Shown here: piece by piece, positions 2,426-58,165 of the stretch | Layout: each line of letters starts with the position of its first letter | Position numbering within the stretch: position 1 is the first letter of the stretch | Source: Flavisolibacter nicotianae | GTDB lineage: Bacteria > Bacteroidota > Bacteroidia > Chitinophagales > Chitinophagaceae | NCBI RefSeq assembly: GCF_003628535.1 | Contig: NZ_RBCI01000002.1 | Coordinates: 310,001-374,000 of the forward strand | DNA length: 64,000 nucleotides | Reading direction: 5' to 3' | The notes under the pieces: model-generated | Database searches by the model: none | Told to the model about the DNA's origin: nothing | What the model saw: the letters and a program-made list of their open reading frames with translations, nothing else | Program-made: the position numbers and the translations under genes

Positions 2426-2953
2426 TCAGGGTCTTTTCTTTTCGAGGCGAAGACCAACATTCATGACTTCGGGTAAAGGATCTTCCCGCATGATTTGTTC
2501 GACCATGAACGTGTATTCGCCCGGCCTGGTAAAATGAAAGCCATCGCCGCCGGGTTGGAAAAAGGAAAACCTGCCGGCTTCTTCGCCCACACGGATCCGG
2601 TGCTCGAAAATATCATCCATGCCGGTGCCCAGCCATCCTTCCTTGCTCGCCAGCGGCAGTTCCAGCGCCAGTTTCTGCAGCGTGTCATTCGGGCCCTTCG
2701 CCCAAAGATTCACCCAGATGTTGTTGTACTTATACTTGTTGTTGTGCCGCAAAAGAAGGTAGAGCTGGTACGGGACAGTAGTGTCTTTTATCTGGAAGGT
2801 AAACTGCGGTTTAAAATTGCTGCGCCACTGGTGAGCGGGAACCGGGACCACTTTTTCGTAAAGGTCAATTTGGGTGCAGGAGAGAAGTTGCAGGCTGCAA
2901 GCGACAAGCTGCAAGTGCAAAAAAGAAGAAAGCTTGTTTCTCAAATTAAACAT
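2426..2953 (-). CDS. gldH: gliding motility lipoprotein GldH
   Basis: A 175-residue protein matching GldH over its length: YKYNNIWVNLWAKGPNDTLQKLALELPLASKEGWLGTGMDDIFEHRI and a C-terminal PGEYTFMVEQIMREDPLPEVMNVGLRLEK. GldH is an outer-membrane/periplasmic lipoprotein needed for Bacteroidota gliding in Flavobacterium. Its role here is by family only, because no other gld gene is in the window. The signal peptide ends in a lipobox (LQLLSC) at about residue 26. Unusually, the hydrophobic stretch LHLQLVACSLQLLSC is encoded by a 7-nt-periodic repeat (2885-2919), so this gene's secretion signal has a repeat origin. It is followed after one base by the kinase start. Confidence 0.9.
   Translation of the reverse strand: MFNLRNKLSSFLHLQLVACSLQLLSCTQIDLYEKVVPVPAHQWRSNFKPQFTFQIKDTTVPYQLYLLLRHNNKYKYNNIWVNLWAKGPNDTLQKLALELPLASKEGWLGTGMDDIFEHRIRVGEEAGRFSFFQPGGDGFHFTRPGEYTFMVEQIMREDPLPEVMNVGLRLEKKRP
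2885..2919. repeat. heptamer-periodic repeat inside gldH signal peptide
   Basis: Five consecutive 7-mers read on the plus strand: AAGTTGC, AGGCTGC, AAGCGAC, AAGCTGC, AAGTGCA. The period is exactly 7 with substitutions. It lies within the coding sequence, in codons for the hydrophobic core of the GldH signal peptide. It belongs with the other heptamer-periodic elements of this window, notably the similar ACAAGCT series at 33948. Confidence 0.8.
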
Positions 2954-3015
2954 GCCGTAAAGCTAACTCGTGATGGCTAAAAAGTTTGAACAAAGCTTGC
3001 AACGTGCTGCTTTTC

Positions 3016-3891
3016 CTACAGCACGTTGAGCACCTGCTCTTTTGCTTTTTCCAGCTCATCCTTCATCAGCACGACAGACTTTTGGATGGTGGAGTCGTAG
3101 GCCTTTGCGCCGGTGGTGTTGATCTCCCGGCCAATCTCCTGCAGCACAAATGATAGTTTTTTTCCTTTGCTTTCTTCCGCGTCGTTGAGGATCGACGAAA
3201 AATAGTCGCAGTGATTTTTCAGGCGCACCTGTTCTTCGCTGATATCGATTTTTTCGATGTAGTAGATGAGCTCCTGTTCCAGGCGGTTGCCGTCATAATT
3301 TTCTTTGCCCACATTTTCCTCCAGCAGCTTGACAACGCCTTCGCGGATCTTTTGTTTGCGCAGGGGTTCGAGGCGTTCCACTTCTTCCTGCTGCTTTAAA
3401 ATGTTGGCGATGCGAAGTTCAAGATCGGCCTGCAGCGACTTGCCTTCTTCACGCCGGTGCTCGTTCAGGTTGTTGATGGCTTCCCGGATAACGTCGGAAA
3501 GTTTTTGCCATTCTTCATCCGTCAGCGTATCGCTGTTGGGCGTAATGACTTCCGGAAGTTTGATGAGTGTGCTTAAGATCGTTGAAACATCAAGTCCCAA
3601 CTCTTCTGATAAATGACGCAAGGGCTCGTAGTAGGCCTTCGCCAGGTTGGTGTTGATGCTTACCGGTTTGGCATTGCCCGTTTCCTTGAGGCTGATGGTG
3701 CAATCCACTGTTCCCCTGCCAAGGCCTTCCGACAGAAGCTTGCGGATGTCGAACTCGAAAGGTTTTAAAAATGCAGGCAGCTTCAACTGGAGATCAAACT
3801 GTTTTCCGTTGAGCGATTTGATGTCCACCAAAAACGTTTTATCACCTACGCTTTGCTCCGCTCGTCCGAAGCCCGTCATTGATTTAAGCAT
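3016..3891 (-). CDS. yicC: YicC/YloC-family endoribonuclease
   Basis: A 291-residue protein with the diagnostic start MLKSMTGFGRAE and the C-terminal DUF1732 region LVFMLQEIGREINT-like (here LSFVLQEIGREINTTGAKAYDS) ending in EQVLNVL, so it is full length. The YicC-like N-terminal domain spans about 1-155 and the C-terminal domain about 205-291, with a charged coiled coil between (KQQEEVERLEPLRKQKIREGVV). YicC-family proteins are stress-related endoribonucleases acting on mRNA or sRNA in other bacteria; the function here is inferred from family. It ends with TAG exactly where the family ends, showing that TAG is an ordinary stop in this genome. Confidence 0.93.
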   Translation of the reverse strand: MLKSMTGFGRAEQSVGDKTFLVDIKSLNGKQFDLQLKLPAFLKPFEFDIRKLLSEGLGRGTVDCTISLKETGNAKPVSINTNLAKAYYEPLRHLSEELGLDVSTILSTLIKLPEVITPNSDTLTDEEWQKLSDVIREAINNLNEHRREEGKSLQADLELRIANILKQQEEVERLEPLRKQKIREGVVKLLEENVGKENYDGNRLEQELIYYIEKIDISEEQVRLKNHCDYFSSILNDAEESKGKKLSFVLQEIGREINTTGAKAYDSTIQKSVVLMKDELEKAKEQVLNVL

Positions 3892-3965
3892 GTACAGATT
3901 CTTTAGGTAGAAGTAAATTTATTTCTTTTCAACCAATCCTCGCCGGTATAAATAGGGCAAACAAA

Positions 3966-3988
3966 AAGCCCCGCTTTTGGCGAGGCTT
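3966..3988 (-). terminator. rho-independent terminator (minus strand)
   Basis: Hairpin AAGCC-CGC / GCG-GGCTT with one mismatch and a TTTT-containing loop, followed on the minus strand by a T-rich tract. It lies between divergent genes (yicC and lpxD), where no annotated transcript should end. It therefore implies a short minus-strand transcript from the 4.0-4.3 kb region. Confidence 0.55.
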
Positions 3989-4061
3989 AATATGTAGATG
4001 GGTTAGTAAGTACAGGAAATCAAATTTCCTATCACAATATTAAAAAGATTTTTTACTAACG
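3966..4061 (-). ncRNA. candidate structured small RNA between yicC and lpxD
   Basis: Upstream (minus-strand sense) of the orphan terminator lies a nested inverted structure. The outer arms are GTTAGTAA (4002-4009) and TTACTAAC (4053-4060), 8 bp perfect. Inside is GGAAAT-CAA-ATTTCC (4015-4029), 6 bp perfect. No open reading frame of note is present. A structured element followed by a poly-T terminator in an AT-rich gap is what an sRNA gene or an independent yicC leader would look like. I do not recognise a family. Confidence 0.3.
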
Positions 4062-4283
4062 AAAAAAAAATCGCACAATTTTTATTCACATTTTTTTGTG
4101 CCGTTGTTAATTCATCACTGCCCGATCGTTTCGCGTAAGCATGTTTTGGAAACCTTGTTGGCGTGGTGAACAGACGTTGTTATTTCAAACGCAGGCGGCG
4201 TAGGTGCTTTCAGCGCTTTCAAAAAATGGAAAGCTGTCGCGGACAATCTGCATAGCGGCATGCACGAAGGCAACGTTCGCCAT

Positions 4284-4291
4284 TACCTTTG
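4284..4291 (+). promoter_or_regulatory. -7 box of lpxD promoter
   Basis: TACCTTTG matches the Bacteroidota -7 consensus TAnnTTTG and lies 17 nt before the chosen lpxD start at 4309. No good -33 TTG/TTTG is visible at the right distance. Confidence 0.5.
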
Positions 4292-4308
4292 GAAAAATTT
4301 TTTCTCGC

Positions 4309-5256
4309 ATGCGATTTGAAAAAGCAGTTCCGTTAACCGAGATCGCCCGTTTGATTGGTGCCCGCATTGTTGGAAACAGCGGCGGTGCAGCAACAGGTAT
4401 CAATGAGATTCACAAAGTCGGGGAAGGTGACCTGGTGTTTGTCGATCATCCGAAATACTATCAAAAATGCATCAACTCTGCCGCAACCTATATCATCATT
4501 AACCAGGAAACCACTTTCCCTCCGCACAAGTCCCTGCTCCTGGTAGACGAGCCGTTTGAAGCCTACCAAACCATCGTTTCGCATTACCGACCGTTTACGC
4601 CGCTGCAAAAAAACATCAGTGATACGGCCACCATCGGCGAAGGAAGCATTGTGATGCCGGGTGCTGTGATCGGTCATCACGTGCAGATCGGAAAAGGTGC
4701 ACGTATTTTTCCGAACGCAGTCATCATGGATCATTGCGTTATCGGCGACAACGTGATCATTCAAAGCGGAACCGTGATCGGAAGCGATGCGTTTTACTAC
4801 AACAAGAAAACGAACCGTGATATCCACTATAAAAAAATGCTGAGCGGCGGACGTGTGGTCATAGAGAACGATGTAGAGATTGGTGCCAACTGTACAATTG
4901 ACCGTGGTGTGAGCGGAGATACCGTGATCGGTGCCGGCACCAAGATGGATAATCTGGTGCATATCGGGCACGATACGGTTGTGGGTAAAAACTGTTTGTT
5001 CGCAGCGCAGGTTGGCGTTGCCGGTGCTACCACCATTGAAGACGAGGTAATATTGTGGGGACAGGTTGGCGTGAGCAAAACGCTGACCATCGGCAAGGGT
5101 GCCGAAGTGTATGCGCAAAGCGGCGTGCCGGCCAGCCTCGCCGGCGGTAAAAAATATTTTGGTTCACCGGCAGAAGATGCCTTGGTCAAAAAGAAAGAAC
5201 TGGTGTGGATGAAGCGCCTCCCGGTGTTGTGGGAAAAGGTGTTTGGGAACAAATGA
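4309..5256 (+). CDS. lpxD: UDP-3-O-(3-hydroxyacyl)glucosamine N-acyltransferase
   Basis: A protein of about 315 residues that adds the second hydroxyacyl chain to UDP-glucosamine in lipid A synthesis in the cytoplasm. The N-terminal domain (1-95; IARLIGARIVGN, GDLVFVDHPKY) is followed by a left-handed beta-helix of hexapeptide repeats (about 100-270: ATIGEGSIVMPGAVIGHHVQIG, VEIGANCTIDRG, VHIGHDTVVGKN). The catalytic His is expected in NLVHIGHD. A C-terminal helix follows. I start at the ATG at 4309 (MRFEKAVPL) because the family begins there and a -7 box precedes it; the longer frame to 4204 has no homologous look. In many Bacteroidota lpxD sits near lpxC/fabZ; here it stands alone. Confidence 0.92.
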   Translation: MRFEKAVPLTEIARLIGARIVGNSGGAATGINEIHKVGEGDLVFVDHPKYYQKCINSAATYIIINQETTFPPHKSLLLVDEPFEAYQTIVSHYRPFTPLQKNISDTATIGEGSIVMPGAVIGHHVQIGKGARIFPNAVIMDHCVIGDNVIIQSGTVIGSDAFYYNKKTNRDIHYKKMLSGGRVVIENDVEIGANCTIDRGVSGDTVIGAGTKMDNLVHIGHDTVVGKNCLFAAQVGVAGATTIEDEVILWGQVGVSKTLTIGKGAEVYAQSGVPASLAGGKKYFGSPAEDALVKKKELVWMKRLPVLWEKVFGNK

Positions 5257-5408
5257 ATAGCGAACAGAAGAACAAGAAATATCGAATGTCGAAGGATGCC
5301 GCTGTGCATCCTTCTTTTTTAAATAGCATCGTTCCTGCATGCCGGCAAAATAAGAGCTACAAAACACTTCTGGAATCAGCCTTCCTTGTTCTGCTGTTCA
5401 TTTATTCA
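5254..5408. repeat. inverted heptamer-like repeat between convergent genes
   Basis: The left arm starts at the lpxD stop (TGAATAGCGAACAGAAG..., 5254-5280). The right arm, on the other strand, starts at the hydrolase stop (TGAATAAATGAACAGCAG..., 5408 back to 5381). The two arms are imperfect inverted copies. GAA units recur at 7-8 nt (5247, 5255, 5262, 5270, 5276, 5284, 5291). Both convergent genes take their stop codon from the first bases of the repeat. Confidence 0.65.
5291..5320 (+). terminator. rho-independent terminator after lpxD
   Basis: A perfect 9-bp stem GAAGGATGC/GCATCCTTC with a 6-nt loop followed by TTTTTT. It lies 35 nt after the lpxD stop. Confidence 0.85.
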
Positions 5409-6830
5409 CTTCACATTTTTCTCCAGCCAGGTGCCGATGGTTTCCAGCACGCTTGGTGAAATGGTTTCTTCCAGTTGGCCGTACTCCGCCACCGTGCACT
5501 GGGTGCAACGTTGAAAAAGATGATTGAGGCCGCTCAGTTCAACAACATCAAAATGCCTTGTCTTGCTTTTTTGTAACAGTGCGTTCAACCCTGCAAGGTT
5601 GGGCCCGGCCAATACCTGTATGTCTCGGTTGCCATTCAGGGCCAGAACAGAAGCGCTGATTTTTTTGACATAGGCTGCCGGATCGTAGTGAAGGAAATAG
5701 GAGAACCAGGGCGTGCCAATCCCTTTTTGAAATGCCTGGATAAACGCTTCTCTGCTTTTTTTGTCGCGGATACCTGTGGTGGCTGAAACAACTTCTTTCG
5801 GTGTTTTCTTCAGCCAGTTGTTTACGATCGTATTTGCTGCCGCTTTTGCTGCAGATTCGGAAGTGGAAGACGTTAGTGCCAGTGCCAGCGGTTTGTAAAG
5901 AGAAAGGTAAGATTCGATGAAGTGTTTTGGCACGCCAGCCGTTTGCAGGATGGCCCCGTTTTGATGCGCCATCAGGTCAATGACTTTTTCCCCGGGTGCG
6001 GCCAGCAGGACCACGAAAGAAAGATCGTTTCGCTGTGCCGCTATCATTTCTGCAATCATGCCGCCTTCGCTGTGACCCAGCAAACCCAATTTTCCTTTGT
6101 CAACTTCTGGCAAGGCTTTCAGGTAATCCAAACCCACCAGGGCATCATTGGCAAAATCCTTTGATGTTGCATTTTTTATTTCGCCGGTCGTTTGTCCAAT
6201 ACCACGGTCATCGACCCGCAATACCAGGTAACCTTTTTTTGTCAGGTAATCGGCAATCACGGCAAAGGGCTTGTGGCCAAACAACTCTTCATCCCTGTTT
6301 TGCTGGCCCGAACCCGTGATGAGTAAAACGGCCGGGAACGGACCTGTGCCAAACGGTTTTGTGATGGTGCCTCCGTACTGAATGGATCTCGTCTAGTTAA
6401 AATAAACGACATCGGTACTTGCATAGGGAAACGGCGGCCTGGGTGTTTGCGGCCGTTTTACTTCCGCGGTAGTTTCGCCGGCTGCCGATTTTTTTAAGGC
6501 AAGCGGGAGACGGATACTCTGGATCCATTCGCCACTGAAAGTGGTGTCACTTGTTAATTTGCCGGACAGTTTTGCGCCGGCCGCGGCAACGTCCAGAAAC
6601 AGGCTGTCGCCGGAATATTTTACATCGCTCACGGGAATGCCTTTTGCGCCCTGGTCGGGACTGTCCAGCGTGGCTGTGTATGTTCCGGCGTCTTCGTGAA
6701 TGTGGACCACGACACGCAGGGAGGCTGCGGGTAAAACCAGCTTCCCTTCCCAGTTGCCGGCAATGTTTTTTTGCGCCTGCACAAAATCAAAAAAAAGCAA
6801 ACTGTAAAAAGCCAAACAGAATTTTTTCAT
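5406..6830 (-). pseudogene. secreted alpha/beta hydrolase, interrupted by in-frame TAG
   Basis: One 474-codon frame runs from ATG 6830 to TGA 5406, interrupted by TAG at 6393-6395. Part 1 (145 residues) has a signal peptide (MKKFCLAFYSLLFFDFVQAQ) and a lipocalin-like beta domain (NIAGNWEGKL...FSGEW) up to DVVYFN. After TAG the frame continues TRSIQYGGTITKPFGTGP, then PAVLLITGSGQQNRDEE and the hydrolase core. The core has nucleophile Ser in GLLGHSEGG, Asp in LNGNRDIQV and His in SGLNHLFQ, all downstream of the stop. Frame and homology are continuous, so a single substitution explains it. No ATG follows the TAG closely, so the catalytic half is probably untranslated. Sequencing error or readthrough are alternatives. 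Confidence 0.85.
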
Positions 6831-6848
6831 GAAAAAAGGGTAAACGGT

Positions 6849-7499: not shown

Positions 7500-7503
7500 A
7501 ACC

Positions 7504-7767
7504 TTATTTCTTTTTTGTTTTGAATTGAATGAACCACTGTGCAATCTCGTCCACCACCGTTGTGTTGAGCGAGTAGGTGATAAACTGCGCCTGCTTTTCG
7601 GCAGCGACCAGGCCGGCCTGCTTCAGCAGGTCCAGGTGGTGCGAAATGCTTGGCTTGGAAATGTGGAAATGGTCGGCGATTTCACCGGCCGTTTTATCAC
7701 CTTCTTTCAGGAGCTTCAGGATTTCCCGGCGGGTCGCATCGTTCAGGGCTTTAAACAAAAGGTTCAT
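7504..7767 (-). CDS. sdpR: ArsR/SdpR-family autorepressor
   Basis: An 87-residue winged-helix protein: MNLLFKALNDATRREILKLLKEGDKTAGEIADHFHISKPSISHHLDLLKQAGLV and a beta wing (EKQAQFITYSLN). No metal-binding ELCVCDL motif is present, which fits the metal-independent SdpR type. First gene of a two-gene operon with sdpI. It probably binds the palindrome at 7784-7803 and represses itself; in Bacillus, SdpI sequesters SdpR at the membrane. Confidence 0.92.
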   Translation of the reverse strand: MNLLFKALNDATRREILKLLKEGDKTAGEIADHFHISKPSISHHLDLLKQAGLVAAEKQAQFITYSLNTTVVDEIAQWFIQFKTKKK

Positions 7768-7783
7768 GGACCGGTGTTTTGAT

Positions 7784-8036: not shown

Positions 8037-8037
8037 G

Positions 8038-10309: not shown

Positions 10310-10319
10310 CCCTTTTCTT

Positions 10320-15888: not shown

Positions 15889-15923
15889 GCTGACCGCTGA
15901 TTGCCGATTGCCAACTGCCTATA
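15889..15923. repeat. heptamer-periodic repeat
   Basis: Five exact 7-nt steps: GCTGACC, GCTGATT, GCCGATT, GCCAACT, GCCTATA. CAGTG units at 15851 and 15858 may extend it. A possible inverted partner (GGCAATCAG) lies near 15987. It sits in the 282-nt gap between the outer-membrane protein and the DUF3857 gene. Confidence 0.75.
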
Positions 15924-33938: not shown

Positions 33939-33946
33939 AAAACAGC

Positions 33947-33995
33947 CACAAGCTGGCGGCTGCAAGCTACAAGCCTTGTGGCTGACAGCTTGTGG
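33947..33995. repeat. heptamer-periodic hairpin between mreB and mreC
   Basis: ACAAGCT, GGCGGCT, GCAAGCT, ACAAGCC (33948-33975) are spaced exactly 7 nt, then TTGTGGC, TGACAGC, TTGTGGA. The left arm 33947-33967 and right arm 33975-33995 pair at 17 of 21 positions around a 7-nt loop. It starts 8 nt after the mreB stop. Confidence 0.8.
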
Positions 33996-34011
33996 ATTGC
34001 CGCTTCTCTCC

Positions 34012-37948: not shown

Positions 37949-38158
37949 TATATTTGCACCACAGGCGGATTTGTTTATTGTTCGGCCTTAATTGAACTAA
38001 TAAACGCAGAAACTCTCCAACCAAGTTTTTCCTGACGTTTATTGGTCCAGTACACGTGAGACGTGAGAAGTCAAACGTGAAACAAAATAGTCTGGTCAGG
38101 CTACGTTCACTCCTGTTTCACCTCTCACGTTTGACGTTTCACGATTTAAATTAATGCA
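37949..38158 (+). promoter_or_regulatory. metH promoter and structured leader
   Basis: TATATTTG (37949-37956) predicts an mRNA start near 37963 and a leader of about 195 nt. The leader can fold two exclusive hairpins: GTTTATT-GTTC (37973-37983) with GAAC-AATAAAC (37994-38005), or AATAAACG (37999-38006) with CGTTTATT (38036-38043). The heptamer hairpin follows directly before the start codon. I recognise no known SAM or B12 riboswitch. Between recR and this promoter (37696-37948) I see nothing clear. Confidence 0.45.
38054..38143. repeat. inverted heptamer-periodic repeat before metH
   Basis: Left arm: ACGTGAG, ACGTGAG, AAGTCAA, ACGTGAA, ACAAAAT (38054-38088), exact period 7. Right arm: TTTCACC, TCTCACG, TTTGACG, TTTCACG (38116-38143), exact period 7. 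The arms pair over about 30 positions with roughly 22 matches. The repeat ends 15 nt before the metH ATG. Confidence 0.85.
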
Positions 38159-48713: not shown

Positions 48714-51700
48714 TTACCCTTTTTTTAAAACGATGACTTTCAACTGGTTTTCGTTAACCTCGATCTCAATGCCATCGGCAATCGTTGACGTAATTTCCAG
48801 CGTGTCTGCCAGAATTTCCGCGCAAATATAGTTATTAAATTTACTAAGTGAAGCGGCGATCCCATTGTTCGCTGCCACTTTAACGTCGATTCTGTCGGTC
48901 ACATCAAAGCCACTGTCCTTACGGATTTTCTGGATTCGGTTGACAAACTCACGGGCATTGCCTTCGTCTTCCAGTTCCGGGGTGATGTTGATGTCCAGGG
49001 CCACGGTCAGCGGGCCTTTGCTGGCTACGGACCATCCCGGGATATCTTCACTGGTGATTTCCACCTCGGCCAGCGTCAATTCAACAGCCTCATCGTTAAT
49101 GGGCAATGAATATCTGCCTTCTTTTTCAAATAAAGAAATGTCGTGCTGGGAAAAATTTTGCAGGGCCGTGGATACCGCTTTCATCCTGGCTCCCAGCTTT
49201 TTACCTAACGCAACGAAGTTGGGTTTGATCTTCTTTTTGATGAAGCCTTCGGTGTCTGTCAGGTACTCCATTTCTTTTACGTTCACTTCCGCTTTAATTA
49301 GGTCTTCCACCTTCTGCAATTGCTGTTCCATGGTTGGGCTCAGTACCGGAAGGAGCACCTTTTGCAAGGGTTGGCGGACCTTGATATTGGCCTTTTTCCG
49401 CAGCGAAAGCACGAGGGAAGAAGCATCCTGCGCCAGTTGCATCCGCTCTTCCAGCTCCGTATCGATCAGCTCTTCCCTTACTTCCGGGAAAAGAATATGG
49501 TGAACCGACTGCCCGTGATGTTTCCCGGTCACGGCGTTTAACTGGATAAAAATTTCATCACTAAAGAAGGGCGAGATGGGCGCCATCAGGCGAACAACGG
49601 TTTCCAGGCACTCGTAAAGAGTTTGGTAGGCTGCAATCTTGTCCTGCTCGTAGTCGCCCTTCCAGAACCGGCGGCGGCAAAGGCGCACATACCAGTTGCT
49701 CAGGTGCTCGTCCACAAAATCTTCGATCAGCCGGCCGGCCTGCGTCGGCTCGTATTCGTCCAGCGCCGCGGTTGCCTGCTTTATCAGGGTTTGAAGGGAA
49801 GAAAGAATCCAGCGGTCGATCTCCGGCCGTTCCGCCACCGGGATGTAGTCTTCCTTAAAGGTAAAACCATCCACATTGGCGTACAGTGCAAAGAACTGGT
49901 ATGTATTATATAAGGTACCGAAGAATTTCCGCTGTACCTCTTTGATTCCTTCAATATCGAACTTCAGGTTGTCCCAAGGCGAGGCGTTGGTGATCAGGTA
50001 CCAGCGGGTGGCATCAGCGCCAAACTGCTCGATGGTCTTGAACGGGTCTACCACGTTGCCGAGGCGCTTGCTCATCTTGTTGCCGTTTTTGTCCAGCACC
50101 AGGCCGTTGGAAACCACCGTTTTGTAGGCCACGCTGTCAAACAGCATCACGCCAAGGGCATGCAGGGTGTAAAACCAGCCACGGGTTTGGTCCACGCCTT
50201 CGGCAATAAAATCGGCCGGGAAATTTTGCGTAAACTTCTCCTGGTTCTCAAAAGGAAAGTGCCACTGCGCATAGGGCATGGCGCCACTGTCGAACCAAAC
50301 GTCGATCAGGTCCGGTTCGCGGCGCATGGGCTTGCCGCTGTCCGACACGAGGATCACCTCGTCCACGTAGGGCTTGTGGAGATCCAAGATGCCGTTGTGC
50401 AGGTAATGCGTGTTCACGTCGCCACCCAACACCTCGCTGGCCTTGCGGATCTCGGCATTCAGTTCCTCAATGGAACCAATGCATTTTTCCTCCCGGCCGT
50501 CTTCAGTCCGCCAGATGGGCAGGGGTGTTCCCCAGTAGCGGCTGCGGCTCAGGTTCCAGTCCACCATGTTTTCCAGCCAGTTGCCAAAGCGGCCGGTACC
50601 GGTACTTTCGGGCTTCCAGTTGATGGTCTTGTTCAGTTCCACCATCCGGTCTTTCACGGCCGTGGTACGGATGAACCAGGCATCCAGCGGGTAGTAAACC
50701 ACCGGCTTGTCGGTGCGCCAGCAATGCGGGTAGCTGTGCTCGTATTTTTCGACCTTGAAGGCCCTATTCTCTTTTTTCAACTTGACCGAAATGTCCACGT
50801 TCACGTCGACATAAGCCGGGTCGCTTTTATAGTCTTTAATGTAGCGGCCGGAAAATTCGCCCAGGCCATCCACAAATTTTCCCTCCCTGTCAACCAGGGT
50901 CAGGATACCAATATTGTATTTCTTTCCCACCCGGAAGTCGTCCGCACCAAAGGCCGGGGCGGTATGCACAATGCCGGTACCGTCTTCGGTGGTAACAAAA
51001 TCGCCCAGTAAGATCCGCCAGGGTTTTGCGCCTGGGGTGATGGCCTGCACCGCCGCCAGGGAATTGGCTTCATCCGGCAGCAATTGTTCGTATTCGAGGC
51101 CTTCCAGTTCCGAACCTTTGAATTCGGCCAGGATCTTCCAGGGAAGCAGTTTTACTTTTTCATCGTAACTGTCAAAGTCACCATTCTCGCCTTCGGGCTT
51201 GAAATATTTGCCCAGCAGGGCCTTGGCCAAAATGACATTAACCGGCAGGTGCGTATAGGGGTTGAAAGTCTTGACCAACACGTAGTCGATGTTTGGCCCC
51301 ACGGTCAATCCCAGGTTGGAAGGAAGGGTCCACGGGGTGGTCGTCCAGGCCAGGAAGAAAATTTCGCAGTTGGCAGTTGGCAGTTGGCAGTTGGCAGCCT
51401 GGAAAAGAAACGCACTTTTTTCATTTCTTACCGCCTTGAACATCGCCACGGCACTGGTGTCTTTCACATTGCGGTAGGTTCCGGGCTGGTTCAGTTCATG
51501 CGAGCTTAAACCGGTGCCGGCAGCCGGCGAGTAGGGCTGGATGGAAACGCTTTTGTACAGCAGTCCTTTTTCATACAACTGTTTCAGGCACCACCACAGC
51601 GTTTCGATGTATTCGTTGGTAAAGGTGATGTAAGGGTGTTCAAGGTCAACCCAGTAGCCCATTTTGGTGGTCAGTTCGTCCCACTTGTCTTTGTAGCGGA

Positions 51701-52117: not shown

Positions 52118-52391
52118 AGAAAATACACTCCCTGTGGTTTGCGAAAACTGGGGAATTGGCGGTGATGGCTATTTGCTACTTGCCATTGGATCAACAGCAA
52201 AACCAGCTTTTTGTTTCCGGTTTTGCAGGGCCCCGCCTGACTATAGAGGAGCTTCTTATCGTCCTTCCTATTTGCAAAATGTCAGGCCTGTGTCATTTTT
52301 CGTATGACCTGACTTCTGTCCTGTCGCTATTTGATTTATATCACTGCCACACGCATGCTGAACGGACAGTTTTGCGCCTGACGATTTTTTT
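52118..52391. other. gap upstream of siderophore receptor
   Basis: Divergent gap. A weak 7-nt series, CTATTTG, CTACTTG, CCATTGG, lies at about 52170-52190. A bulged hairpin (GTCAG...GTCAT / ATGAC-CTGAC) lies at about 52280-52312. No Fur-like palindrome or riboswitch is recognised. Confidence 0.4.
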
Positions 52392-54947
52392 ATGATGCAT
52401 CTCAAGACAACGACAAGTTTTTCCACTTTCCGTAAAGCCTTTTTCCCGATCCGGCAGCAAAAAAAGGCCGGTCTCGGCTCTCTTTGCAAAAAAATATTGA
52501 CCGTGAGACGAGTTGTTCTTTTTTCCTTGCTGACATTTAATTTATATACCCTTGCACAGGCCGGAACTGCGGCGCCCCGTTTTGCTGCCGCTATCGATAT
52601 TCCTGCTGCAACCATCACGGGCCAGGTGAAGACCGCCGATGGTCGGCCGGCAGCTTTTGTAACCGTGCTAATAAAAGAAAATAAAAAACTGACCCTGACC
52701 GATGAAAACGGAAATTTTGTAATCAAAGGCCTCAAAGAAGGAACCTATACGCTTGAGATCACCATGGTCGGTGTAAAGCCGCAAATCAATACCGTCCAGA
52801 TAAAAAAGGACGAGACGCTTTCTCTTTCGTTTATGCTGGAAGAAAATGCAGGCGAATTGTCGGCCGTTGTGGTGACCTCTGGCCGTTCGCTGAACAACCG
52901 GCCCGTATCGATTGGCAAGATCACGATTCACCCAATGGACCTGCCGCAAAGCATGGCAGTGGTGGGGCAGGGGTTGATCCGCGAGCAGCAGGCGCAACGC
53001 CTGGGCGATGTGATCAAAAATGTGAACGGCGTCTATGTAACCACCACCCGCGGCGCTGTGCAGGAAAGTTTCGGGGCTCGGGGCTATGGCTTTGGCAGCA
53101 GCAACCTGTTTAAGAACGGTGCCCGCATCAACTCCGGTGTAATGCCGGAAATGAGCTCGCTGGAAAGAGTGGAAGTGCTGAAAGGCAGCTCGGCGATCCT
53201 GTTTGGTCAGGTGGCACCCGGTGGCATTCTGAACATGGTCACCAAACAACCCAAATTCGACGGCGGCGGCGAAATTTCCTTCCGTGCCGGGAGCTATGAC
53301 CTGTACAAGCCTGCATTTGATATTTACGGACCCCTGTCTTCTTCGGTTGCTTACCGGGTTAACGGAACCTACGAATCGGCCGGCAGTTTCCGGGACCAGG
53401 TCACGTCCAGCCGCGCCTATATCAATCCCTCTCTTCTCTTTAAATTAGGAGAGAATACGGAGCTGGTTACCGAAGGCGATTACCTCTTTCACCGCTTTAC
53501 GCCGGATTTTGGCATAGGCAGCCTGAATAATACAACGATTCCATCGGTGCCCCGTTCCCGTTTCATGGGCACGTCCTGGCAGTACAATAAAACAAAACAG
53601 GCAACCGCAACCGCAACACTGAAGCACCGGTTCAGCGATGCCTGGAAACTCAATGCCTCTGTCGCTTACCAGTTATACCAAAGAGATTATTATGGTGTGG
53701 AACGAATCCAGGCGGCTTCGAACGGCGACTGGACACGACCGCTGGGTAAAATTCTTTCACGCGAAGATTATTCTACCGGCCAGGCGAACCTCAATGGAAA
53801 ATTTGCTACCGGCGACTGGGAACATAACCTGCTGACCGGCGTAGATGCCGATCATTATATCACCGTAAACAACGATTTCCGTTTCCCGGCCGTTGCCGGG
53901 CTGCCCGCAGGTGGTTACGACAAGATTAATATCCTCGATCCCGAAAAATACATGCAGCGCACCGATGTGCCCGAGGCTACGCCCATCCGCAAACGAAATG
54001 CGCCGGTGGATCGGTTCGGGGTATATGCGCAGGACCTGATCAAGATTTCTTCCAAATTCAATGTGCTGGCAGGCCTTCGCTGGTCGTACGTGGCAACAAA
54101 AGGCATTGATAGCACCAACCTGCTTACCGGTGCGCAAACAATTGGGGCAAGCCGTTACGACCAGGCCTGGTCACCCCGTCTGGGACTTGTTTACAAACCG
54201 TCTGCGAACACGTCTTTCTTTGTTTCGTACGCCAACTCCTTTGTGGTGAATACGGGCCAGGATGTTGAAGGGAATCCTGTCAAACCTTCTCTGATTGATC
54301 AGTACGAAGCGGGGGTGAAGAATGAGCTATTCAACGGCCTGCTTTCGGCAAACGTGACCGTGTACCGGATCAAAAACAATAACCTGGCACAAACGGCACC
54401 ATTCCGGATCGACGGTACGCCCAACACGGACGCGGGGATTAAACAATTGACCGGCCAAACCACCAGTGATGGTGTGGAAGTGGACCTGGCGGCACACCCG
54501 GTGAAGGGGCTGGATATCCTTGCCGGCTATAGTTATAATTATATGCGCTACACCAAAACGGATACGACGGTTGGCAGTTTTAAAACCGGCGAACGCCTGG
54601 TGAACAACCCGGCACATACTGCCAACGGAAGTATATTTTACACCTTTGGCAACGGGTTGTTGAACGGGCTGAAAACCGGTGTAACAGTGGTGTACACCGG
54701 CGATCGTTTTGGTGGATGGAACACGGATGTCGTATCAACCAACCCGGTGAAATACCGGACACGCATTTTCCCGGTTGAAGGTTTCACCACGGTTGACCTT
54801 TCTGCCGGCTATACGTACAAAAAGATTTCCCTGATGGGCAAAGTGCCCAACCTCACCAATGCACTGAATTATTATGTGCACGAGAACTACAGCATCAACC
54901 CCATTCCGCCAGCCCAGTTTGTGGCTACCGTATCGTATAAATTTTAA
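52392..54947 (+). CDS. TonB-dependent siderophore receptor
   Basis: 851 residues. Signal sequence (VVLFSLLTFNLYTLAQAG), N-terminal carboxypeptidase-like domain (about 70-155: ITGQVKTADGRPAAFVTVLIKENKKLTLTDENGNFVIKGL), plug domain (PQSMAVVGQGLIREQQAQRLGDVIKNVNGVYV, RVEVLKGSSAILFGQVAPGGILNMVTKQP) and a 22-strand-type barrel ending in FVATVSYKF. This is the FhuA-like class that imports ferric siderophores across the outer membrane using TonB energy. The start is an ATGATG pair and the N-terminus before the signal is about 30 residues longer than usual; a later start is possible. No siderophore enzymes are adjacent. Confidence 0.93.
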   Translation: MMHLKTTTSFSTFRKAFFPIRQQKKAGLGSLCKKILTVRRVVLFSLLTFNLYTLAQAGTAAPRFAAAIDIPAATITGQVKTADGRPAAFVTVLIKENKKLTLTDENGNFVIKGLKEGTYTLEITMVGVKPQINTVQIKKDETLSLSFMLEENAGELSAVVVTSGRSLNNRPVSIGKITIHPMDLPQSMAVVGQGLIREQQAQRLGDVIKNVNGVYVTTTRGAVQESFGARGYGFGSSNLFKNGARINSGVMPEMSSLERVEVLKGSSAILFGQVAPGGILNMVTKQPKFDGGGEISFRAGSYDLYKPAFDIYGPLSSSVAYRVNGTYESAGSFRDQVTSSRAYINPSLLFKLGENTELVTEGDYLFHRFTPDFGIGSLNNTTIPSVPRSRFMGTSWQYNKTKQATATATLKHRFSDAWKLNASVAYQLYQRDYYGVERIQAASNGDWTRPLGKILSREDYSTGQANLNGKFATGDWEHNLLTGVDADHYITVNNDFRFPAVAGLPAGGYDKINILDPEKYMQRTDVPEATPIRKRNAPVDRFGVYAQDLIKISSKFNVLAGLRWSYVATKGIDSTNLLTGAQTIGASRYDQAWSPRLGLVYKPSANTSFFVSYANSFVVNTGQDVEGNPVKPSLIDQYEAGVKNELFNGLLSANVTVYRIKNNNLAQTAPFRIDGTPNTDAGIKQLTGQTTSDGVEVDLAAHPVKGLDILAGYSYNYMRYTKTDTTVGSFKTGERLVNNPAHTANGSIFYTFGNGLLNGLKTGVTVVYTGDRFGGWNTDVVSTNPVKYRTRIFPVEGFTTVDLSAGYTYKKISLMGKVPNLTNALNYYVHENYSINPIPPAQFVATVSYKF

Positions 54948-54964
54948 GGAAATTATTTTTGAAA

Positions 54965-55006
54965 AGGCAAGACCCCGGAGGTTTTAAAATCCTCCGGGGT
55001 CTTTTG
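54965..55006. terminator. strong terminator after siderophore receptor
   Basis: A perfect 13-bp stem AAGACCCCGGAGG / CCTCCGGGGTCTT with a 9-nt loop and TTTT after it. Confidence 0.92.
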
Positions 55007-55097
55007 CGCTGCGGAAAAAGATTGGTAAAAAGATGTTTGAGCAGGCAGCGGAAAGCATGAACAGGTGTAGGGAATGAGAACGTTTTCGTTGACGCGT

Positions 55098-55130
55098 AAG
55101 AGGCGCTTTATAAAAGGCGCCTCTTGTTGT
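55098..55130 (+). terminator. possible second terminator
   Basis: AAGAGGCGC/GCGCCTCTT, a perfect 9-bp stem with a 10-nt loop. The T tract is weak (GTTGTTTG), so it may instead be a leader structure of the exonuclease gene. Confidence 0.5.
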
Positions 55131-55263
55131 TTGAAAGCGTTTGGCACGAAGCATGCACAGTGTATTGTTCTTTTGGAAAAACGATTTGCCCTGCCAATTT
55201 TCCTGTCCTGATTGTGCCATTTATTCAATTCGGGCCGTTGCGGATTATTCTGTTCAGGAAGAC

Positions 55264-55271
55264 TATTTTTG
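55264..55271 (+). promoter_or_regulatory. -7 box giving leaderless exonuclease III mRNA
   Basis: TATTTTTG, 5 nt before the ATG at 55277. TTG at 55238-55240 has a 23-nt spacer. Confidence 0.55.
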
Positions 55272-55276
55272 ACGCC

Positions 55277-56062
55277 ATGAAAATCATCAGCTACAATGTC
55301 AACGGCATTCGTGCAGCCATGAAGAAAGGCTTCGTGGAATGGCTGCAAACCCATCCCGCCGATGTGATCTGCATACAGGAAAACAAGGCACAGCAAAGTG
55401 ATGTGGACGCCAAACTGTTCAATGATCTCGGCTACCACGATCACTGGTTTTGTGCGCAGAAAAAGGGCTACAGCGGTGTGACTGTTTTTTCTAAAATTCA
55501 TCCGGACAATGTGCAATGCGGAACAGGCCACCAGGTAAGTGATGACGAAGGCCGGGTGATTCAACTGGATTTTGGAAAGGTGAAATTGATCAACGCCTAT
55601 TTCCCGTCCGGTACCTCCGGCGACGAGCGGCAGACCTACAAATACCAGTGGCTGGATGAATTTTACGATTATGTGCAGGTGCTGCGGGAAAAGAACCCGT
55701 ACATTATTCTTTGCGGCGATTACAATATTGCCCACAAGGAAATCGATATTCACAATCCGGCAGGAAACAAAAACACCTCCGGCTTTCTGCCCGCCGAAAG
55801 AGCCTGGATGGATAAGTTTTACAGCAATGGCTGGGTGGATGTGTTTCGCCATTTCAGGCCGGAGCCGCACCGTTATTCGTGGTGGAGCCAGCGTTTTCCC
55901 AAAGTGCGCCTGGAAAACAAAGGATGGCGTATCGACTATATTTCTGCAACGGAAAAATTAAAGCCCTTCTTAAAAGATGCGGAGATTTATCCCGATGTGA
56001 AGCACAGCGATCACTGTCCCGTGTATGCGGATATCGACGTGGAAAAAATCAACGAAAAATAA
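55277..56062 (+). CDS. xth: exodeoxyribonuclease III
   Basis: 261 residues of the Xth/APE1 group: MKIISYNVNGIRAAMKKGF (metal Asn), CIQENKAQ (metal Glu), LINAYFPSG, ILCGDYNIAHKEIDI (catalytic Asp-Asn), FLPAERAWMD, YSWWSQRF and the closing KHSDHCPVYADI (Asp-His). An AP endonuclease/3' exonuclease for base-excision repair. ATG 55277 is the family start; the frame extends upstream without support. It is followed by the DUF4286 gene after 5 nt. Confidence 0.95.
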   Translation: MKIISYNVNGIRAAMKKGFVEWLQTHPADVICIQENKAQQSDVDAKLFNDLGYHDHWFCAQKKGYSGVTVFSKIHPDNVQCGTGHQVSDDEGRVIQLDFGKVKLINAYFPSGTSGDERQTYKYQWLDEFYDYVQVLREKNPYIILCGDYNIAHKEIDIHNPAGNKNTSGFLPAERAWMDKFYSNGWVDVFRHFRPEPHRYSWWSQRFPKVRLENKGWRIDYISATEKLKPFLKDAEIYPDVKHSDHCPVYADIDVEKINEK

Positions 56063-56067
56063 CCGTG

Positions 56068-56382
56068 ATGTCAGAAGCGATCATCTATAATGTAACGGTG
56101 AAAGTGGACGCCTCTATTGCCGATGCCTGGCTGCAGTGGCTGAAGGACGAACACATTCCGCAAATGTTGCAAACCGGCTGTTTTACCGGCGCCAAAATCG
56201 TTCGCCTGCTGGAGGTAGACGAAAGCGAAGGACCGACGTACGCCATTCAATACAGCGCCGAAACCAAAGCCGATTATAACCGGTACATTACGATGCATTC
56301 GGCGGGCATGCAGCAAAAGTCGTACGGCAAATGGGGCGATCGTTTCATTGCGTTCCGAAGCGTCATGCAAGTGGTCGGCTAA
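56068..56382 (+). CDS. DUF4286 family protein
   Basis: 104 residues: MSEAIIYNVTVKVDASIADAWLQWLKDEHIPQMLQTGCFTGAKIVRLLEVDESEGPTYAIQY. A ferredoxin-like alpha-beta fold of the dimeric alpha-beta barrel type common in Bacteroidota, function unknown. It starts 5 nt after the exonuclease stop, so it is co-transcribed; the frame extends upstream only as a shadow inside that gene. Confidence 0.9.
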   Translation: MSEAIIYNVTVKVDASIADAWLQWLKDEHIPQMLQTGCFTGAKIVRLLEVDESEGPTYAIQYSAETKADYNRYITMHSAGMQQKSYGKWGDRFIAFRSVMQVVG

Positions 56383-56632
56383 GATTCTGCGTCCGAAATG
56401 CAATTCGCAAGCCTTGTCGAATCATACATTCTCTACCTGTATTGGATTAAATCGTGTGCCGGATGTGGACGGTGGTGTTTTGTGCGTGGTCTCGTGAAAC
56501 GCTGATGCAGCAAGGCTTTGCGCCGATGTGCGTAAAAGCCGAAACGTACTTATGCGCAGGTCATTCGGCTGAAACCCTTAACCACGGCGGCTTACAGCCT
56601 GCGATGCTTTTTGAAAAAAGGACGAAAATTAT
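56383..56632. other. 250-nt gap, nothing convincing
   Basis: An open frame at 56454-56657 (67 residues, Cys/Met-rich) has no homologous look, runs into the HU promoter and is not called. Confidence 0.5.
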
Positions 56633-56662
56633 TTTGTTGCTATGGAAAACCGTCTAAATTTG
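56633..56662 (+). promoter_or_regulatory. HU gene promoter
   Basis: TTTG (56633-56636), an 18-nt spacer and TAAATTTG (56655-56662), an exact -7 box. The leader is about 25 nt and AT-rich before the ATG at 56694. Confidence 0.8.
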
Positions 56663-56693
56663 TTCCATTCAATTTTGAATTAAAAAAATAACT

Positions 56694-56963
56694 ATGAACA
56701 AAGCTGAACTGATCGCGAAGATTGCCGAAGATGCTGGCATCACCAAAACACAAGCCAACACTGCCCTGGATTCTTTTGTGGAAGCTGTAACCAAAACCCT
56801 GAAAGGTGGTGGTAAAGTAACCCTGGTGGGTTTCGGAACATTCTCTGTTTCGAAGCGTGCTGCCCGCAACGGCCGCAACCCCCAAACAGGTGAGGTAATC
56901 AAGATCAAAGCTCGCAAAGTTGCCCGCTTTAAAGCTGGTAAAGAGCTTTCTGCCAAGTTGTAA
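56694..56963 (+). CDS. hup: HU-family DNA-binding protein
   Basis: 89 residues: [89 protein letters not shown]. The DNA-intercalating Pro is in RNPQTGE and the arm is basic. A nucleoid protein, canonical in length. It has its own promoter and terminator. Confidence 0.97.
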
Positions 56964-56982
56964 CCAACTGCAAAACCGTATT

Positions 56983-57014
56983 AAAAGTCCCGCATTTTTT
57001 GCGGGACTTTTTTA
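56983..57014 (+). terminator. terminator after HU gene
   Basis: AAAAGTCCCGC/GCGGGACTTTT with loop ATTTTTT and a long T run. Same stem as at 29293 and 41960. Confidence 0.92.
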
Positions 57015-57078
57015 TTTTCTCCGCCATGGCCTTGGCTGCGGCCATTTTTTTCCGACATTTGCCACCTAAAATTTTGAT

Positions 57079-57207
57079 ATGGGAAGAGGTGATAAAAAAA
57101 CCAAAAAAGGAAAAACCTTCAAAGGTTCTTTCGGCAAGTGGAGACCGGCAAGCAAAAAGAAAATTTCTGCAACCGCTCCGCAAGTGAAGAAAGCAACAGA
57201 GGAATAA
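57079..57207 (+). CDS. 30S ribosomal protein THX (bTHX)
   Basis: 42 residues. It begins MGRGDKKTKKGKTFKGSFGK, then WRPASKKK and an Ala/Lys tail ending ATEE. The MGxGDKKTxKGK start and basic content are those of the Bacteroidota THX/S31-like small-subunit protein, which fills a cavity in the 30S head. The C-terminal 15 residues are longer than the Thermus protein. It follows the HU terminator by about 65 nt. A heptamer repeat starts at its stop codon. Confidence 0.85.
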   Translation: MGRGDKKTKKGKTFKGSFGKWRPASKKKISATAPQVKKATEE

Positions 57208-57282
57208 GCAATTTGCAATAGGCAATTGGTAAAGTGTTTACAGAAAGATCATGGCCAATTGTCTATTGCCTATTCCTCATTG
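57206..57282. repeat. inverted heptamer-periodic repeat between THX and pdxH
   Basis: Left: AAGCAAT, TTGCAAT, AGGCAAT (57206-57226), exact period 7, starting in the THX stop codon. Right: ATTG/ATTC at 57258, 57265, 57272 and 57279, exact period 7. The two arms are inverted copies (GAGGAATAAGCAATTTGCAA and GAGGAATAGGCAATAGACAA on opposite strands). Confidence 0.85.
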
Positions 57283-57286
57283 TACA

Positions 57287-57931
57287 CTACGGTGCCAACC
57301 GCTCAATCTTCCAGGCGCCATTTTCTTCCATCGTATACTGTATCCTGTCGTGCAGGCGGCTGTAACGGCCCTGCCAGAATTCGATCATCACAGGCTTTAC
57401 CATGTATCCGCCCCAGTGTGGTGGACGCGGTACGTCTTCATTGCTGAATTCCGCTTTTCTTTCGTCAAATTTTTGTTCCAGCCATTCCCGGTTCTCGATC
57501 ACCTGGCTCTGTGGCGAAGCCCACGCACCAATGCGGCTGCCGATCGGACGCGACTGGAAATAGGCATCGCTTTCGGCCGCCGGTAATTTGGAAACAAGGC
57601 CCATGATCCGTACCTGCCGTTCCAGTTCCTTCCAAAAAAACACGAGGCTTGCTTTGGGGTTTTCGTCTAATTGAGTCCCTTTAAAACTTTGGTAGTTGGT
57701 GAAAAAAACAAACCCGTTTTCATCAAATCCTTTGAGCAAGACAATCCGGGCCGAAGGAAGTCCATCGGCCGATGCCGTGGCAAGAATCATGGCGTTCGGC
57801 TCCGGCACTTCGGCGGCAAGGACCTGCGTCCACCACCGTTGAAATTGTTGAATGGGATCGGCCGCAATATCTTTTTCCAACAGGGTTTCCGATGCGTATT
57901 CTTTTCGGATATCAGCAATGGCTTTGTTCAT
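57287..57931 (-). CDS. pdxH: pyridoxamine 5'-phosphate oxidase
   Basis: 214 residues with the FMN-binding split barrel: MNKAIADIRKEYASETL, PNAMILATASADGLPSARIVLLKGFDENGFVFFTNYQS, FWKELERQVRIMG, SRPIGSRIGAWASPQS and the C-terminal PPHWGGYMVKPVMIEFWQG, RLHDRI and IERLAP. It makes pyridoxal 5'-phosphate from PNP/PMP. ATG 57931 gives the family start; ATG 57949 adds six residues. It is convergent with THX. Confidence 0.96.
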   Translation of the reverse strand: MNKAIADIRKEYASETLLEKDIAADPIQQFQRWWTQVLAAEVPEPNAMILATASADGLPSARIVLLKGFDENGFVFFTNYQSFKGTQLDENPKASLVFFWKELERQVRIMGLVSKLPAAESDAYFQSRPIGSRIGAWASPQSQVIENREWLEQKFDERKAEFSNEDVPRPPHWGGYMVKPVMIEFWQGRYSRLHDRIQYTMEENGAWKIERLAP

Positions 57932-57994
57932 GCAGGCGAAGGTAGGCATGGGTTTGCTGCGGTCTGGGTGATTTCCCTCAGGGCTTAGGAGATA

Positions 57995-58137
57995 AGCTGT
58001 TCGAGGTTGGAAGAACTTTGTCTTTCAATTCAATCTTGGGACAGGCTGTTATGCAAAGGCATGCGGAATGGGAAAGGAAACGCCGGTATTGTGTTCAACC
58101 GCAAACCTCGAACAATGGAAACTGAACCTCGAATATT
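57995..58137. repeat. inverted heptamer-periodic repeat upstream of GH3 gene
   Basis: The right part AACCTCG, AACAATG, GAAACTG, AACCTCG, AATATTT (58104-58138) has exact period 7. The left part (57995-58037) contains the inverted counterpart TGTTCGAGGTT, 11 identical bases to the complement of the right arm. It fills the 234-nt divergent gap between pdxH and the GH3 gene. Confidence 0.75.
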
Positions 58138-58165
58138 TCTCCGCTTTTCCCGTTAACTTGCCCCG

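What the first reader, a model, noticed from the sequence alone, without database searches (positions are those of the whole stretch)
2885..58138. A family of 7-nt-periodic mini-repeats of different sequence, often as inverted pairs
At least nine places in 64 kb show DNA with a period of 7 (exact in seven: 2885, 15889, 33948, 38054, 51366, 57206, 58104; approximate at 5247 and 35421; weak near 52170). The heptamer differs at each site (AAGCTGC, GCCGATT, ACAAGCT, ACGTGAG, GCAGTTG, GCAATxx, AACCTCG, GAACAxx), so this is not one transposed element but something that generates or copies heptamer arrays. Six sites have an inverted partner forming an imperfect hairpin of 20-30 bp. Heptamer STRR repeats of cyanobacteria are the closest described thing I know; I know of no named system in Bacteroidota. 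Possible roles: transcription termination, mRNA stability, polymerase slippage products, or a mobile hairpin.
Basis: seen in the sequence. Interest (0 to 1): 0.8.

Follow-up and report, generated by a model that had tools for sequence, protein, structure and literature searches.

The report
Heptamer arrays are S23-protein element stems
The odd 7- and 8-letter DNA repeats scattered between this bacterium's genes appear to be the hairpin ends of small mobile-looking elements that sometimes carry a gene for a ring-forming 'four-helix-bundle' protein, each protein lineage tending to have its own repeat word; genes of the same family lie between such repeats in cyanobacteria.

Summary
In 1.26 Mb of this Flavisolibacter-like genome, tandem 7- and 8-nt arrays are intergenic (71 intergenic, 6 coding, 0 simulated); periods 6 and 9 are not enriched. 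They often form stem-loops with a purine-rich 5' arm, close to stop codons, and differ between congeners. Of ten listed sites, two do not stand up and several are weak.

What they are: 7/8-nt arrays bracket genes of the four-helix-bundle protein S23p (PF05635, '23S rRNA intervening-sequence protein'). Of 111 S23p genes examined in the genus, 93 lie between inverted arms (cross-locus control 26 of 555), best period 7 or 8 in 86 of 93. Word and period follow the protein tree, also at unrelated loci. In plasmids, 19 of 20 S23p genes examined (cyanobacteria, Azospirillum) have inverted repeat arms. A published Coxiella 23S rRNA IVS carrying an S23p ORF holds tandem heptamers (PMC4990558).

Best reading: the window's arrays are gene-less derivatives of S23p elements, an intergenic, multi-word variant of 23S rRNA intervening sequences and perhaps the source of cyanobacterial heptamer repeats. 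Binding of the word by S23p, and movement, are inferred. One congener has arrays but no detected S23p.

The parts
2885..2920 (.). AAGCTGC-class array (modest), gene-less; overlaps a low-scoring called ORF 2534-2980
   Evidence: TRF row; local score 10.0 for 2889-2915; ORF
5262..5293 (.). weak array just after the stop of the gene ending at 5256 (the finding's 5247 site; GAACANN by eye); best inverted partner 5382-5411
   Evidence: score 7.5, partner score 28
15889..15919 (.). GCNGATT/GCCAACT-class heptamer array, intergenic
   Evidence: score 14.0
33939..34011 (+). mreB-mreC intercistronic stem-loop; AGCTNNN-type heptamers by eye, array score only 8.0
   Evidence: MFE z -4.2; genes by Pfam
38054..38083 (.). 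ACGTSAR-class array, 5' (purine-rich) arm
   Evidence: score 13.0
38125..38143 (.). 3' arm (TTTCACG class) of the 38054 hairpin
   Evidence: partner score 28
51363..51397 (+). GCAGTTG x 4.6 inside ileS (gene on -), in a loop that varies in length and sequence between congeners
   Evidence: score 26.0
57187..57232 (.). GCAATTN-class array, 5' arm
   Evidence: score 13.5
57255..57281 (.). 3' arm of the 57187 hairpin, next to the stop of the PNPOx gene on -
   Evidence: partner score 29

Best explanation
The arrays are the terminal stems of a class of small repetitive elements: [tandem 7/8-nt words] - loop - [inverted tandem words]. Some copies carry one gene in the loop, for S23p (PF05635/TIGR02436), the protein known from intervening sequences (IVS) of 23S rRNA. 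Most copies, including all in this window, carry no such gene.

Each S23p lineage tends to go with its own word and period, and gene and arms behave as one unit that turns up at unrelated places and in different species. The most likely working is that the S23p ring recognises the tandem word (as RNA stem-loop or single strand, or as DNA) and maintains or mobilises elements bearing it, gene-less ones in trans. Insertion is mostly tolerated in transcript 3' ends, where the stem-loop may also act as an mRNA end or spacer, as in mreB-mreC.

Shown: the anatomy, the gene link, the word-protein link, differences between congeners, and recurrence of gene plus arms in cyanobacterial and Azospirillum plasmids. 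Inferred: binding, mobility in trans, any RNA function. Not known: the step that writes new arrays.
For: 114 distinct S23p places were examined, mostly the better-scoring ones of 179 matches (whose listing was cut); 111 gave an ORF. 93 of 111 have inverted arms scoring >=26 (control 26 of 555); best period of 5-12 is 7 in 64 and 8 in 22 of the 93.

A 7/8 array lies on at least one side of 24 of 30 S23p loci, on both sides of 11; near 145 of 1083 genes of this genome; beside 2 of 30 PF13366 loci (Fisher tests).

Word follows protein (82 elements with period 7/8, arms >=26): with no homologous ORF found in the 0.6-1.5 kb of flank held and identity >=0.6, 40 pairs share the period in 100% and the word within one letter in 62%; below 0.3 identity, 59% and 1% (2592 pairs). 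Mantel 0 of 1000 permutations. On the tree, period changes 6 times (shuffled mean 18.8, minimum 13), word class 16 times (35.2, minimum 30); genome labels show no clustering (69; mean 62.2).

Screened from the arrays, 4 of 6 inverted array pairs 250-1100 bp apart enclose an S23p ORF by coordinates; 4 of 4 S23p ORFs in 80 named family loci have inverted arms, scores 34-44.

Plasmids: 19 of 20 S23p genes at >=26 and 16 of 20 at >=40, against 13 and 3 of 109 other genes on three of the plasmids. Coxiella IVS heptamers: PMC4990558 passages. No S23p among called genes of the window.
Against: G005 has no PF05635 match, yet 63+51 GTSAATG matches.

The trans link is weak: 39 of 79 gene-less arrays here match a word of the genome's own S23p arms within one letter, but words from G001 and G006 match 34 of 79 each. 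By my tally the AGTTGA class has a known cognate S23p in 4 of 9 genomes with such matches and 0 of 9 without (one-sided p 0.04).

The link could be co-inheritance without binding. The cross-phylum word-protein test is mixed: 10 of 2000 permutations of Chitinophagaceae arms reach the observed value, but 350 of 2000 of cyanobacterial arms.

Arm length is about 30-32 nt for both periods, which does not favour a fixed count of five words. The cross-locus control among plasmid loci was high (109 of 380; words are shared), and three of the 19 have best period 9. 18 of 111 S23p genes lack arms at the threshold.
Confidence: 0.75

Rival explanations
1. The arrays are host stem-loops selected at mRNA 3' ends (termination, stability, spacing within operons); tandem words are only an easy way to build and rebuild a stem, and S23p genes are occasional passengers.
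For: Arrays densest in convergent gaps (0.88 per kb against 0.27 in divergent), median 1.5-4 nt from the nearest stop there; purine-rich 5' arm in 36 of 36 array-partner cases here and 74 of 89 unique hairpins overall; the mreB-mreC gap holds a significant stem-loop in 12 of 16 scored genomes of the genus, with different words.
Against: At C2:176481 a terminator-like stem is shared while arrays beside it occur in one species only. Only 8 of 23 scored mreB-mreC gaps in the wider family have such a stem, and five gaps are 5-31 nt. An array sits inside ileS. This view does not predict that words follow S23p lineages.
Confidence: 0.2
2. S23p genes are parasites that land in the loops of pre-existing array hairpins; the hairpins have another origin.
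For: Most hairpins have no gene. In G010 a DUF559-like ORF (my reading of the sequence) lies in another kind of hairpin in the mreB-mreC gap. PF13366 genes sit between inverted repeats of other periods (flawed). G005 has arrays without detected S23p.
Against: Protein lineage predicts word and period at unrelated loci, which random landing would not give; PF13366 genes have 7/8 arrays beside them in only 2 of 30 loci.
Confidence: 0.12
3. REP-like hairpins moved by a Y1 (RAYT) transposase.
For: Y1_Tnp matches in 14 of 18 genomes of the genus; REPs likewise sit at gene 3' ends (recalled).
Against: None detected in G004, G005, G008 and G010, although G008 has 130+161 and G005 63+51 GTSAATG matches; no single conserved palindrome.
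Confidence: 0.03
4. A reverse transcriptase writes the arrays, with S23p as an Avd-like partner.
For: S23p resembles the Avd protein of diversity-generating retroelements (PMC10053308 passages; NCBIfam Avd model E 7.5e-9 but under its cut-off).
Against: No RVT_1 match in 12 of 18 genomes of the genus, among them the window's own and G008. An annotated avd gene beside an RT in Anabaena sp. 90 has no inverted flanks at >=26.
Confidence: 0.04
5. Neutral microsatellite-like slippage of 7/8-nt units in non-coding DNA.
For: Unit-number differences between arms and species, by eye.
Against: Only lags 7 and 8 (and their doubles) are enriched. Perfect arms with internally unlike units, by eye. Same word at many places in one species and none in a congener: GTSAATG 130+161 in G008, 0 in G013.
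Confidence: 0.03

Closest known systems
23S rRNA intervening sequences (IVS) with an S23p ORF (e.g. Coxiella; PMC4990558)
   Same: S23p ORF in an element with inverted repeats; scattered occurrence; called a selfish element; tandem heptamers (GACAGAT) before the ORF whose number varies between strains (passages).
   Different: Here in intergenic DNA and not in rRNA (no Rfam match at nine S23p loci of this genome); dozens of words; most copies lack the gene; RNase III excision untested.
Cyanobacterial STRR heptamer repeats (recalled) and TAACTGA repeats (PMC4679880)
   Same: Tandem intergenic heptamers of several words; indels mostly in 7-nt steps; TAACTGA repeats noted in Cyanobacteria, Beggiatoaceae and five Bacteroidetes (abstract and one section).
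   Different: No S23p gene or inverted-arm element was linked to them in the parts read. Here S23p genes of cyanobacterial plasmids lie between such arrays, and a gene-less array that I read as TAACTGA type occurs on a Nostoc plasmid (L426 22233).
REP/BIME hairpins with RAYT transposase (recalled)
   Same: Dispersed hairpins near gene 3' ends, presumed moved in trans by a dedicated protein.
   Different: No fixed palindrome; tandem words; Y1 gene not detected in two array-rich genomes.
Avd of diversity-generating retroelements
   Same: PF05635 resembles Avd according to PMC10053308 (passages).
   Different: No RT needed; the Avd model's cut-off is not passed.

Membership tests
S23p / 23S rRNA IVS elements | S23p (PF05635) ORF | tested here: met
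   17 PF05635 matches in this genome, matches in 17 of 18 genomes of the genus; none among called genes of the window, whose copies are gene-less
S23p / 23S rRNA IVS elements | ORF between long inverted repeats forming a stem | tested here: met
   93 of 111; 19 of 20 in plasmids
S23p / 23S rRNA IVS elements | insertion inside 23S rRNA | tested here: not met
   no Rfam match in nine S23p loci of this genome (of 17 matches) nor in the window
S23p / 23S rRNA IVS elements | excision by RNase III | not testable with these tools
   needs RNA
Cyanobacterial STRR | tandem heptamers, intergenic | tested here: met
   octamers as well
Cyanobacterial STRR | identity with the published STRR sequences | not tested
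   the original sequences were not at hand
REP/RAYT | cognate Y1 transposase in the genome | tested here: not met
   no match in 4 of 18 genomes of the genus, two of them (G005, G008) rich in GTSAATG matches
Diversity-generating retroelement | reverse transcriptase | tested here: not met
   no RVT_1 match in 12 of 18 genomes of the genus, the window's own among them

The most novel reading that the evidence does not exclude
S23p proteins are a large family of sequence-specific ring proteins, each reading its own tandem 7/8-nt word, one word per subunit, much as the TRAP ring reads spaced triplets (recalled). Word and protein co-evolve as pairs, and the pairs account for cyanobacterial STRRs, the TAACTGA repeats, the Bacteroidota heptamer and octamer hairpins and the heptamers of 23S rRNA IVSs as one trans-phylum system of repeat-writing selfish elements.
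Probability: 0.35. Interest if true: 0.95.

Novelty: new variant of a known kind. Interest (0 to 1): 0.85.

Why it matters
Heptamer repeats of cyanobacteria, Beggiatoaceae and Bacteroidota have been described without a maker being named in what I read or recall, and S23p proteins have solved structures (2gsc, 2rld) without a known function (PMC4990558 passages). Joining the two makes both questions testable: a protein with a predicted target, and a repeat with a predicted protein. It also gives many natural protein-word pairs, from which a recognition code could be read, and would explain much fast-changing intergenic DNA in Chitinophagaceae. The listings of my ten searches of the held open-access library did not show the link; subscription papers and preprints are not covered.

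Tried and rejected
Rejected: pure slippage; a single transposed sequence (unlike loops and words by eye); Y1/RAYT and reverse transcriptase as general drivers; known Rfam RNAs. An impression from a few hairpins that arm units keep direct rather than mirrored order was dropped when 89 hairpins were listed and many arms proved perfect inverted repeats (by eye, not tested formally). A G<->C excess between neighbouring units was seen for period 7 only and not pursued. The pentamer idea would predict longer arms for octamers; not seen. The cross-phylum word-protein test is inconclusive. The trans-specificity test is weak. I looked for empty sites of gene-bearing elements in the synteny at hand and found none that could be read.

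Errors and dropped rows. Loci lying on the minus strand were not turned: four of eleven congeners (G009, G005, G011, G002) did not align; 14 of 96 loci dropped out, and rest on that reduced set (one search added 20 loci). In one search the same cause, I think, left several genomes without a gap reading; one search turned them. One search repeats the main counts on 114 distinct places (116 fetched, two of them twice); three gave no ORF (L377, L381, L404). The one search counts (PF05635 14 of 25 against 3 of 104; PF13366 9 of 18 against 0 of 49) carry this flaw. L274 was dropped from word tests because its arms are one long inverted duplication; ORFs under 95 aa were dropped too. Searches left out arrays containing TAAACCC or CCCTAAT (one search also GGGTTTA), a separate conserved motif; one search did not, so its 163 non-coding arrays include them. 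The AGTTGA control is void because the word reads the same backwards; match counts are overlapping positions, not separate arrays. One search uses softer detector settings. My notebook has two slips: plasmid arm periods are 7 in 9, 8 in 7 and 9 in 3 of 19, and the ileS loop gain is not '+6' against all congeners.
Full report
OBSERVATION. The window is G000:C2:310001-374000 of a 6.09-Mb genome. Its nearest named relative found is Flavisolibacter longurius (ileS 89% identical at protein level in the best segment; its contig has the same length as G006 contig C9, so G006 is very probably that species). I read 1.264 Mb of the genome and called genes with a simple codon-usage caller of my own. Self-matching segments at lags 7 and 8 are strongly enriched in non-coding DNA and absent from simulations; lags 5, 6, 9, 10 and 11 are not enriched, lags 13/14 are (double periods). 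Of the finding's ten sites, four are good arrays by score, 33948 is a strong hairpin with a modest array, 2885 is modest, 5247 and 35421 are weak but have inverted partners, 52170 is chance-level and 58104 is not an array.

ANATOMY. Of 95 arrays here, 36 have an inverted partner within 200 bp at score >=26, against 2 of 95 random intergenic pieces; in G006, G014 and other Chitinophagaceae loci 97 of 184 against 15 of 184. In all 36 cases here (some hairpins count twice) the 5' arm is the purine-rich one; over 89 unique hairpins of all genomes the split is 74 to 13 with 2 ties. Arrays are densest in convergent gaps, where they lie a median 1.5 to 4 nt from the nearest stop codon. Many hairpins elsewhere have perfect arms although the units within an arm differ (by eye).

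TURNOVER. Of 66 orthologous gap pairs with G006 or G014, 11 show a detected array: ten in one species only and one in both with unlike words (the window's mreB-mreC gap counts as 'one only' because its own array is under the threshold). At C2:176481 a terminator-like stem is shared while arrays beside it occur in G014 only. Some arrays are shared: G006 and G014 have nearly the same mreB-mreC hairpin. In that gap (window 33939-34011; genes by Pfam) 12 of 16 scored genomes of the genus, this one included, have a significant stem-loop and 9 of 16 have 7/8 arrays (not G000 itself, score 8.0), with different words; in 23 scored gaps of 30 wider-family loci 8 and 8, both together in 5, and five further gaps are only 5-31 nt. 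Inside ileS the GCAGTTG array sits in a variable loop: of seven congeners that aligned, four are six residues shorter, one is one shorter, and G006 and G015 are as long, G015 with a heptamer-like insert by eye; so the gain is not simply the array. Word classes are amplified species by species: GTSAATG triples give 130+161 matches in G008 and 0 in G013 (control at most 2); AGTTGA octamers give 99+48 in G015 and 0 in nine of 18 genomes, G000 among them (its control is void).

THE GENE. PF05635 (23S rRNA intervening-sequence protein, S23p) has 17 matches in this genome and occurs in 17 of 18 genomes of the genus. One of these proteins (L273) matches TIGR02436, 'four helix bundle protein', and PDB entries 2rld and 2gsc. 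Six listed S23p genes lie within my fetched stretches of G000 and G014, and all six have inverted arms of repeat words, scores 24-63, five of them at >=26. Over 114 distinct places in the genus (of 179 matches, mostly the better-scoring), 111 gave an ORF and 93 of these have inverted arms at score >=26, against 26 of 555 cross-locus pairs. The best period is 7 in 64, 8 in 22 and other in 7. An array lies beside 24 of 30 S23p loci but only 2 of 30 PF13366 loci and 145 of 1083 genes of this genome (distances defined slightly differently). Starting from arrays instead, 4 of 6 far-spaced inverted pairs enclose an S23p ORF by coordinates.

WORD AND PROTEIN. Among 82 elements (period 7/8, arms >=26), word similarity follows protein identity: Mantel rho 0.202 between genomes, and 0.175 for pairs with no homologous ORF in the flanks held (0.6-1.5 kb a side); 0 of 1000 permutations each. 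At identity >=0.6 without shared flanks, 40 pairs agree in period always, in word within one letter in 62% and within two in 95%. Below 0.3, 2592 pairs give 59%, 1% and 7%. On the tree, period changes 6 times (shuffled mean 18.8) and word class 16 times (35.2), while genomes are mixed (69 against 62.2) (earlier, smaller versions). Examples from the tree: GTTCACNN, GTTGAYNN and TATTGGTY octamers, and GTTTGGN, ACGTSAR, TTAGCNN and GCARTTG heptamers, in separate clades. Two window classes have an S23p with like arms in this genome: ACGTGAG (38054) at C1:846289, and GCAATTG/GCAGTTG (57206, 51366) at C2:139805. This link shows that gene and arms travel together; it does not by itself prove binding.

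OTHER PHYLA. In PLSDB plasmids 37 records hold S23p at E 1e-5, nearly all cyanobacteria, plus Azospirillum and Gemmatirosa; the phage collection has none. Of 20 loci fetched (19 cyanobacterial, one Azospirillum), 19 have inverted arms at >=26 and 16 at >=40, best period 7 in 9, 8 in 7 and 9 in 3; the one miss (Nostoc HK-01) still has arrays on both sides. The cross-locus control was high, 109 of 380, because words are shared (tally). Words include AACAGGG, AAAAGGG, GGTGACA, CCAGTGA, AGGGTGT and TTAGCNN (7) and GCAGAGGA (8), and in Azospirillum, an alphaproteobacterium, GGACGGATGACAGA. On three of these plasmids 13 of 109 other genes reach 26 and 3 reach 40. Gene-less hairpins of the same words occur there, one inside a relaxase gene. 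The Coxiella IVS paper reports three tandem GACAGAT heptamers before its S23p ORF, varying between strains, and a pentameric ring for a relative (passages only). Whether words agree across phyla lineage by lineage is unsettled, though the Pseudanabaena word TTAGCNN matches that of two of its three nearest Flavisolibacter proteins.

INFERENCE. I conclude that the window's arrays are gene-less stems of S23p elements. I think it likely (about 0.6) that S23p recognises its word, and possible (about 0.3) that the ring reads one word per subunit. How arrays are written is open: the genome has no detected RVT_1 reverse transcriptase, Y1 transposase was not detected in two array-rich congeners, and one congener, G005, has arrays without detected S23p.

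LITERATURE. Seen: abstract and the section on Cyanobacteria and Bacteroidetes of PMC4679880 plus a term search; passages of PMC4990558 and PMC10053308; search listings otherwise. STRR, REP/RAYT and TRAP details are recalled.

Noticed in passing
L296-L325 (PF13366 loci), e.g. L299, L321, L305: Genes of PF13366 (PDDEXK_3) also lie between inverted repeats, by eye of longer period (for example GCACGGAATACACGGAA): perhaps a parallel element class. 9 of 18 loci scored >=26 against 0 of 49 controls (with the strand flaw told there).
   Followed up: partly
L193 (G010 mreB-mreC gap): A DUF559-like ORF (my reading, not searched) sits inside a long hairpin with CCCTCTCCTAAAGGAGAGGG-type arms where congeners have heptamer stem-loops.
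   Followed up: no
window 37950-38050: A conserved stretch (GGCGGATTTGTTTATTGTTCGGCC ... CGTTTATT) upstream of the homocysteine S-methyltransferase gene in many congeners looks like a structured leader RNA; Rfam has no credible match.
   Followed up: partly
L108, L112, L115, L119, L130 and others (18 hits for two motifs in 80 ileS loci): Nearly invariant TAACCCCTAAACCCTAAACCGTA following a G-rich/C-rich hairpin near ileS in several genera; not an array family.
   Followed up: no
L427 9043-10539: Anabaena sp. 90 plasmid carries a reverse transcriptase next to an annotated avd; this avd has no inverted flanks at the threshold, unlike the S23p gene on the same plasmid.
   Followed up: partly
L274 (G002): S23p gene between near-perfect inverted copies of about 130 bp that include neighbouring non-array sequence.
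   Followed up: no
G005: A 7.0-Mb congener without detected PF05635, PF13366 or Y1_Tnp, yet with 63+51 GTSAATG matches.
   Followed up: no
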